From Trichocoleus sp. FACHB-46 (GTDB lineage Bacteria > Cyanobacteriota > Cyanobacteriia > FACHB-46), in the NCBI RefSeq assembly GCF_014695385.1, contig NZ_JACJOD010000031.1, positions 1-64,000 on the forward strand: a stretch of DNA of 64,000 nt, in the 5' to 3' direction. Below, piece by piece: positions 21,136 through 23,131 of the stretch. Made by a program: the position numbers and the translations under genes. The notes under the pieces are model-generated. The model was given only the letters and a program-made list of their open reading frames with translations. It had not been told where the DNA came from and made no database searches. Numbering within the stretch: position 1 is the stretch's first letter; each line of letters begins with the position of its first letter.

Positions 21136-22818
21136 CTAACGAGGCCAAACTTGAACAGCAATCTCGGCTAATTTATGTCCACGTCGCTGAATTTCGGATG
21201 CGTTCCAAGCATTTACATTTCTAAAATATTGGTTCAGAGCAAAGCTACTCTTCTCACTCAGGTATTCTAATTTTTCCGCAAATGGCTTATTTGAGAGTTC
21301 AGGATTGTAGGCAGTAAGAGTTAGATTCCCTAGAGTGTGCAGCCATTTTTCATATTGCTCGTTAGCATTAGCTCCAAGCATAGCCCGCCATTCATCCGTC
21401 AATGTTTGAGGCATTATGTGCTCGACAGAGAGACTCTCCGTTTTTATTTGCTCCTTCGATAAATTTTCAGCAAGGCTTTCTAATATGAGTTTTACTCGAT
21501 CGTTGCGTCTATCTGTATATAATCTTTCTTCAACAATACTGCGCCTTAATGAGTCATCATCAGGCCAAACTTGAGTTAGTTGTAAACCTAGTAAAACTTG
21601 ACGCAATGTACTTACTAAGTCACCAGACCAGCGCTCTTTTATTTCACGATACAAAGTATTAAAAACCTTATCCAATGCGTTAGATGGCATACCGCATAGC
21701 AGGCGACGTACAAAATAAGATTCAACATATCTTAGCGCTTGTTCAAACTCACCTAGCGATATATGTTTGTTTTTATAGTCATGGTGAAGGTTTAGGAGTA
21801 GAGGATAGCAAGTTGTAAAATCTAACCTCTTAAACCTATTGAACCATCTAAATAGTTTGGGTTCTTTTTCAGTTTCAGGGAAGTGGACTCGACGGTAGTA
21901 GTCCGCAAATTCAAGAACCTGCTTAAGTTCCTGCAAGGCATCAAGTTGTTTATTCTCAAAGGCTTGCTTAAAAACCTGATAGACTTGGTTTTGTTTAAGA
22001 GAAACTCCATCTTTGCGAAGATATTGCCAGAAGGCCAAGGTTAACTCATCTAGGTATCTACCTCTTGCTACTGCTTTAAATCCTTCTTGCAAAGGCAGCC
22101 AAGAATCAGAATAAATCTCATCATGTTTTTCTTTTGGTATCTGTAAAAAGAAGTAGTTGCGAATTAAATCTGCTTGTGTGAGTGGCGCTCCCTTATAATT
22201 TAGACTTTCAAAAATTAAATAAGGATTGTCATCATCGTTTAACGTAATGCTAACTAGTGTCAAACGTTCCAGGATTACAGTCTTGAGTTTTGATAAGTTA
22301 AGAGGAGTATCAGGATCTGCTGATTCACCCTTTTCCAGCTTATTCAGAAAGAATAGATAAGCTTCATCAATTCGCCCACGCTTTTCGGGTTCCTTGGCTT
22401 GAACAATTTGCTGGTAGAAGCTGGAGTCGGCCTGAGTTGGCAAAACTTTATATCGATCGTCTCCCTTCTTAAACTTATTGATCAAATAGTATTCATGTAG
22501 CTCCTCAGCCAGTTCAGAACCTTGTTTCTTTAAGAGATCCCTTAGTGCAATAAGTAATAGTGTCAGAGTTATTAAACGTTGTTGTCCATCAATCAAGAGA
22601 TAAGGAGAGATACCATCAGCAGTTCCCGGCTCTGCAAGAGTAACAATAGGTCCAAGAAAATGATACTCTTCTACACCATCACTGTATAAACTCATTAGGT
22701 CATCCCAAAGAGTTTCCTAATTGCCTTTTTCCCATGAGTATGGTCTTTGGAAAAGAGGAACCTTAAACTGTTTACTACCCTCTAAAAGATTACGAAAGCT
22801 TGTTTCAGATGCTTTCAT
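21136..22818 (-). pseudogene. DUF262-DUF1524 (GmrSD-like) nuclease gene with an in-frame amber codon
   Basis: Read from the ATG at 22818, which has AGGGAG seven bases upstream, the frame gives the classic DUF262 N-terminus FKVPLFQRPYSWEKGN. It then meets TAG (22717-22719) at codon 34 and continues in the same frame, ETLWDDLMSLYSDG, to a stop at 21136. The body has the nucleotide-binding DGQQR (77-81 of the full frame) and a DUF1524 HNH region: EHIMPQ (His467), LGNLTLT and NKPFAEK. Fused DUF262-DUF1524 proteins include type IV restriction enzymes that cut modified DNA. A restart at ATG 22695 would make a 519-residue protein lacking QRPYSW. A Trp (TGG) or Gln (CAG) codon is the likely ancestor. 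The rest shows no further lesion, so the change is recent, tolerated, or a sequencing error. Confidence 0.85.
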
Positions 22819-23131
22819 TCGATTGCTCCCTAAGCTTAAGAAAAAATTTAAAACTACCCACGCTTCTCATCTTTATAACACTAGATTAAGTGTCTGTCGG
22901 TGTGACCAAATCACTCTCATACGGAAATAGAATGAGCATTTATTCCAGTAAGTGAAATTCTGACAGACTTGCAGAGCGAATTTATCAAGCGATCCCGCTC
23001 GGAGAATTCTTGCAAGGTAATATTGATTCGAGTTGTGCGACTTGAAACTTGAAGGCGATCGCCAGCTAATTACAACGAGGGGGAAACCCTTGCGCTAAAG
23101 TCAGTAAAGGCTAGTGCGTATTGTTGAATTT
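22819..23131. other. Intergenic region, nothing further seen
   Basis: This AT-rich 313-base gap separates the divergent DUF262 gene and mutS. It must hold both promoters. I see no RNA gene, repeat or conserved short frame, only the AGGGAG at its left end that serves the DUF262 start. Confidence 0.4.

What the first reader, a model, noticed from the sequence alone, without database searches (positions are those of the whole stretch)
21136..22818. Amber codon splits a DUF262-DUF1524 nuclease gene right after its QRPYSW motif
With TAG at 22717-22719 ignored, the frame is an uninterrupted 560-codon DUF262-DUF1524 protein with a good ribosome binding site at the ATG 22818. The motif FQRPYSWEKGN precedes the stop and ETLWDDL follows it, so TAG replaces an ordinary residue, probably Trp or Gln. 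Possibilities are recent inactivation of a defence nuclease, phase-like on/off by reversion, readthrough, or restart at ATG 22695, which would lose the conserved N-terminus. A sequencing error is the simplest competitor.
Basis: partly seen in the sequence, partly recalled or inferred. Interest (0 to 1): 0.72.

Follow-up and report, generated by a model that had tools for sequence, protein, structure and literature searches.

The report
Recent amber stop in defence nuclease
A cyanobacterium's DNA-defence enzyme gene carries one very recent stop mutation at an otherwise invariant tryptophan, most likely an ordinary inactivation, although the same genome also carries an unusual stress-type tRNA array with a tRNA that could read that stop.

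Summary
The minus-strand ORF 22818-21136 is an intact 560-codon GmrSD-type (DUF262-DUF1524) gene except for TAG at 22717-22719, codon 34. All 33 other homologues compared, down to about 36% identity, have TGG (Trp) there, including the syntenic ortholog of a same-genus species (99% protein, 91% DNA identity). So TAG arose by one G-to-A transition. Otherwise the gene is under very strong constraint (dN/dS about 0.013; one to three missense changes on this branch). Unconstrained drift covers at most about 1-2% of the time since the split, so the lesion is very recent, an assembly error, or suppressed. Restart at ATG 22695 would delete the FQRPYSW element; the matching SspE residues are needed for defence.

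The suppressor check gave a surprise. This genome, but neither same-genus relative, has a plasmid-like contig with a ~30-tRNA array. It includes a CUA-anticodon tRNA, and its promoter boxes match the TrcR-repressed trn operon of Anabaena. But TAG shows no genome-wide sign of being read: no excess of TAG-broken orthologs, no TAG avoidance, no extra backup stops. I favour a recent loss-of-function nonsense mutation (0.68), then assembly error, then conditional suppression, which is unproven.

The parts
21136..22818 (-). GmrSD-type (DUF262-DUF1524) single-polypeptide nuclease gene, 560 codons, interrupted
22717..22719 (-). in-frame TAG, codon 34; TGG (Trp) in 33 of 33 other homologues compared
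22732..22752 (-). FQRPYSW element (codons 23-29); F23 Q24 R25 align with SspE Y30 Q31 R32
   Evidence: SspE mutants in PMC9646914
22693..22695 (-). ATG at codon 42, possible restart; product would lack FQRPYSW and begin inside helix 31-46
22576..22590 (-). DGQQR motif (codons 77-81), intact
22826..22829 (-). GGAG, likely ribosome-binding site for ATG 22818
   Evidence: direct reading

Best explanation
A very recent nonsense substitution (G to A, Trp34 to amber) has interrupted an otherwise intact, stand-alone GmrSD-family (DUF262-DUF1524) gene in a cyanobacterium. Translation starting at ATG 22818 stops after 33 residues. Any restart at codon 42 makes a protein without the conserved FQRPYSW segment, expected to be inactive. 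Shown: the stop, the Trp in all relatives, the single-step route, the strong constraint until very recently. Inferred: that the protein was a DNA-modification-sensing, NTP-dependent anti-phage nuclease (from its family), and that the allele is now null or nearly so.
For: The TAG is the only lesion. The syntenic ortholog in G002 and 32 other homologues have TGG there. G000-G002: dN 0.0057, dS 0.44, 116 synonymous versus 7 non-synonymous codon differences, 43:2 on this branch with the stop itself one of the two, so the gene can have been unconstrained for at most about 1.4-2.3% of the branch. In the sister species without the array or the CUA tRNA, similar in-body nonsense codons also occur (TAG at Y119/318 and E49/111, TAA at H76/153), so such alleles are background in this genus. 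The second nonsense codon found among about 60 matches to the family, in another genus, lies elsewhere in a genome without this tRNA element. Trp34 is invariant, and the restart product loses the element whose SspE equivalents Y30 and Q31 are needed for defence.
Against: The gene shows no decay at all, as expected also if it were still translated in full or if the stop were an assembly error. A CUA-anticodon tRNA is present in this very genome and in neither same-genus relative; the element was found with a CUA anticodon in only 2 of 386 genomes of the phylum, so the coincidence is notable. No expression data and no reads were available.
Confidence: 0.68

Rival explanations
1. The TAG is a consensus error in a 92-contig draft assembly and the organism has TGG.
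For: Lone substitution in a perfectly constrained gene at an invariant Trp; draft assembly of 92 contigs; no other genome of the same species was reachable to confirm it.
Against: Consensus substitution errors in deep short-read assemblies are rare (general knowledge), and nonsense alleles occur at a similar rate in the sister genome, a single complete contig.
Confidence: 0.16
2. The amber codon is read conditionally: the array-borne tRNA with anticodon CUA suppresses TAG when the array is derepressed (translational stress, loss of TrcR repression), so the nuclease is made only then.
For: tRNA with anticodon CTA at L039:3362-3433, 49.5 bits, over the Rfam cut-off. The array promoter region has TTGACA plus TGTAGTAT boxes, the octamer that overlaps the -10 box of the TrcR-repressed, stress-induced trn operon of Anabaena PCC 7120 (PMC10272220). 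The two same-genus genomes have 40-42 tRNAs and no such element, and the ortholog in G002 reads TGG. The same CTA element occurs in three Nostoc plasmids.
Against: No TAG excess among broken orthologs (1 in G000 versus 2 TAG in G002), no TAG avoidance as terminator (121/374 versus 126/375), no extra backup stops after TAG (0.48 versus 0.46). The anticodon of this tRNA element varies (CTT in seven plasmids, CAT or CAA elsewhere), so decoding TAG is not its conserved role. The acceptor stem has a conserved A2-A71 mismatch (direct reading) and the charged amino acid is unknown, while position 34 is invariant Trp.
Confidence: 0.1
3. Translation restarts at ATG 22695 (codon 42) and yields a shorter, working protein.
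For: The ATG lies 21 bases after the stop; the rest of the frame, with DGQQR and the HNH-type domain, is intact.
Against: The restart product lacks Q24, R25, Y27, W29 and W34, all invariant in 23 homologues, begins inside helix 31-46, and lacks the segment aligned with SspE Y30/Q31, whose mutation abolishes defence.
Confidence: 0.04

Closest known systems
GmrSD family Type IV restriction enzymes (single-chain; BrxU, PDB 7p9k)
   Same: GmrSD_N plus GmrSD_C domains in one chain, DGQQR motif, EH..PQ and GNLTL/N motifs, same fold
   Different: Low identity (about 15%), lone gene beside mutS and a ygjP-like gene, no BREX or methylase neighbour recognised among the ORFs scanned, substrate unknown; here interrupted at codon 34
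DndI of DndBCDE-DndI (PDB 9jfl) and SspE (7drs, 6jiv)
   Same: Best structural and sequence matches; N-terminal QR.YSWE and DGQQR elements align
   Different: No dnd/ssp genes recognised in the neighbouring ORFs that were scanned; whole genome not searched for them
PADLOC 'Orf5' (PDLC02693) and HEC-06
   Same: Best PADLOC profile matches over the whole length, 702 and 257 bits for the intact homologue
   Different: Names of profiles only; no activity tested here
trn operon of Anabaena sp. PCC 7120 (26 tRNA genes, TrcR-repressed)
   Same: Dense tRNA array on a plasmid-like contig with TGTAGTAT box in the promoter region
   Different: About 30 genes, including one with anticodon CUA; expression and TrcR not tested here

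Membership tests
GmrSD (DUF262-DUF1524) Type IV restriction enzyme family | GmrSD_N (PF03235) domain | tested here: met
   80.9 bits for the part after the stop, 129.3 bits for the intact homologue; cut-off 33.2
GmrSD (DUF262-DUF1524) Type IV restriction enzyme family | GmrSD_C (PF07510) HNH-type domain | tested here: met
   96.3 bits, cut-off 23; H467 and N498 invariant
GmrSD (DUF262-DUF1524) Type IV restriction enzyme family | DGQQR motif | tested here: met
   IDGQQR at codons 76-81, invariant in 23 homologues
GmrSD (DUF262-DUF1524) Type IV restriction enzyme family | modification-dependent DNA cleavage | not testable with these tools
   needs an assay
Functional (expressed, full-length) gene | uninterrupted reading frame under the standard code | tested here: not met
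   TAG at codon 34
Amber-suppressed gene | tRNA with anticodon CUA in the genome | tested here: met
   L039:3362-3433
Amber-suppressed gene | genome-wide trace of TAG reading (TAG excess in broken frames, TAG avoidance, backup stops) | tested here: not met
   (864 kb compared with the sister species)
Amber-suppressed gene | tRNA charged and active in decoding UAG | not testable with these tools
   needs a reporter or tRNA sequencing

The most novel reading that the evidence does not exclude
A defence nuclease gated by translational stress: the amber codon keeps it off until a plasmid-borne, TrcR-type-controlled tRNA array is induced, for example by phage or antibiotic attack on translation, and its CUA tRNA lets the full-length protein be made.
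Probability: 0.06. Interest if true: 0.85.

Novelty: new member of a known kind. Interest (0 to 1): 0.36.

Why it matters
As an ordinary case it shows a defence gene being lost by a single recent step after long strong selection. If the suppressor link were true, it would be a natural stop-codon switch on bacterial immunity worked by a mobile tRNA array, and would give those arrays a concrete decoding target. The presence of a CUA-anticodon tRNA in several cyanobacterial plasmid arrays is worth a test in its own right.

Tried and rejected
A codon- and hexamer-score scan for interrupted genes in 1.63 Mb of the genome mostly found neighbouring genes that share a frame and missed the finding's own gene, so it is weak; its stop counts (TAA 18, TAG 16, TGA 8) are in line with the genome's terminators (620, 411, 226). 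Ortholog comparison replaced it; most raw hits there were over-extended start sites. The other TAG-containing family member (L208, G156) was checked as a possible recurrent programmed stop and rejected: different site, poorly conserved, no such tRNA element. Duplicate intact copy: none in the genome. The G001 homologue (37%) is at another locus and is not the ortholog. ARAGORN's label 'tRNA-Pyl' rests on the anticodon only and is not taken as pyrrolysine. Papers on amber suppressors in cyanobacterial tRNA arrays were not found in the held library; the original report of the Anabaena trn operon was not held under the identifier I tried.

Full report
Observation. The minus-strand frame 22818-21136 encodes 560 residues with one internal TAG at 22717-22719, codon 34, in the context FQRPYSWEKGN*ETLWDDL. 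A GGAG lies 7 bases before ATG 22818. Pfam recognises GmrSD_N and GmrSD_C in the part after the stop, with GmrSD_N starting only at profile position 38. The intact homologue from Tolypothrix FACHB-123 matches GmrSD_N from position 2. There is no second copy in the genome, which is a draft of 6.56 Mb in 92 contigs.

Which codon belongs there. The same-genus genome G002 carries an ortholog at the same place, between ygjP-like and mutS genes, 99% identical in protein and 91% in DNA, with TGG at codon 34. Tolypothrix (83%) also has TGG. Across 34 loci, every other homologue down to about 36% identity has TGG; only this genome has TAG. In an alignment of 23 intact homologues Q24, R25, Y27, W29 and W34 are invariant. 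In the remote relatives SspE and DndI the position is a hydrophobic Ile rather than Trp (read from the alignments). So the event is a single G-to-A transition, Trp to amber.

How old it is. Between this gene and G002, dN is 0.0057 and dS 0.44; 116 codon differences are synonymous and 7 are not. On this branch 43 polarised synonymous changes stand against 2 non-synonymous, one of which is the stop. A gene free of constraint for the whole branch would have gathered about 333 non-synonymous changes; with one to three missense changes seen, freedom from constraint can cover at most about 1.4-2.3% of the branch. The lesion is very recent, or it is not a lesion in effect, or it is not there.

Effect on the protein. 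The AlphaFold model of the intact homologue (mean pLDDT 87) puts residue 34 in the first long helix, 31-46, right after the FQRPYSW loop. Foldseek's best solved matches are DndI (9jfl), SspE (7drs, 6jiv) and BrxU (7p9k). F23, Q24 and R25 align with Y30, Q31 and R32 of SspE; Y30A and Q31A abolish phosphorothioate-stimulated GTPase activity and phage resistance there (PMC9646914). A restart at ATG 22695 would begin at codon 42, inside that helix, and lose this element. It would keep DGQQR and the HNH-type domain, but by inference would not work.

Is the amber read? A tRNA search of the genome found 73 genes, about 30 of them packed in 3 kb of a 10.2-kb contig (C35, L039) with ParA-like and transposase-like frames, plasmid-like in content. 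One of them, L039:3362-3433, has anticodon CTA (49.5 bits, over the Rfam cut-off). Both same-genus genomes have 40-42 tRNAs and lack this element. The promoter region of the array holds TTGACA and several TGTAGTAT-type boxes. Exact TGTAGTAT boxes stand before the arrays of ten of twelve related plasmids examined, one more has close variants, and Kovacikia has none. TGTAGTAT is the octamer that overlaps the -10 box of the Anabaena PCC 7120 trn operon, which TrcR represses and antibiotics acting on translation induce (PMC10272220). So a conditional suppressor is conceivable.

Against suppression. In 864 kb aligned with G002, 513 orthologs contain one convincing in-body nonsense codon in this genome (this TAG). 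G002, without the tRNA, has three plausible ones, two of them TAG. TAG ends 121 of 374 genes here and 126 of 375 in G002; a further in-frame stop within ten codons follows TAG in 48% and 46% of cases. None of these shows selection by, or adaptation to, TAG reading. The sample is about 13% of the genome, so a weak effect could be missed. The tRNA element itself is conserved in flanks and acceptor across Nostocales plasmids, but its anticodon varies: CTA in this genome and three Nostoc plasmids, CTT in seven plasmids, CAA or CAT in more distant ones; in a sample of 386 genomes it appears in four. Its body resembles the array's tRNA-Arg(TCT) without A20 (and direct reading), and position 2-71 is mismatched. 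What it carries, if anything, is unknown.

Judgement. The most economical reading is a recent loss-of-function nonsense allele of a GmrSD-family gene (0.68). An assembly error (0.16) cannot be excluded without reads. Conditional suppression (0.10) deserves a test because a CUA tRNA in a stress-type array is uncommon and sits in this very genome, but no result here shows that TAG is read. Restart is least likely (0.04).

Noticed in passing
L039:2781-5745 (own genome, contig C35): Array of about 30 tRNA genes on a 10.2-kb plasmid-like contig, absent from the two same-genus genomes; promoter region with TGTAGTAT boxes as in the TrcR-repressed Anabaena trn operon.
   Followed up: partly
L039:3362-3433; L060:3011-3082; L061:3011-3082; L064:3011-3082; equivalents in L062-L069; L222, L223, L225: A tRNA element with conserved flanks (GAAAAAGCTTACATACT ... 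GAATCAACAGCT) but changing anticodon (CTT, CTA, CAT, CAA, always C34) in cyanobacterial plasmid tRNA arrays; role unknown.
   Followed up: partly
L208:2719: Another GmrSD-family gene (G156, same class) with one in-frame TAG, at a poorly conserved site, in a genome without the tRNA element.
   Followed up: partly
L004:3416-4107 versus window 23055-23063: G002 carries about 690 bases between the DUF262 gene and mutS that are absent here.
   Followed up: no
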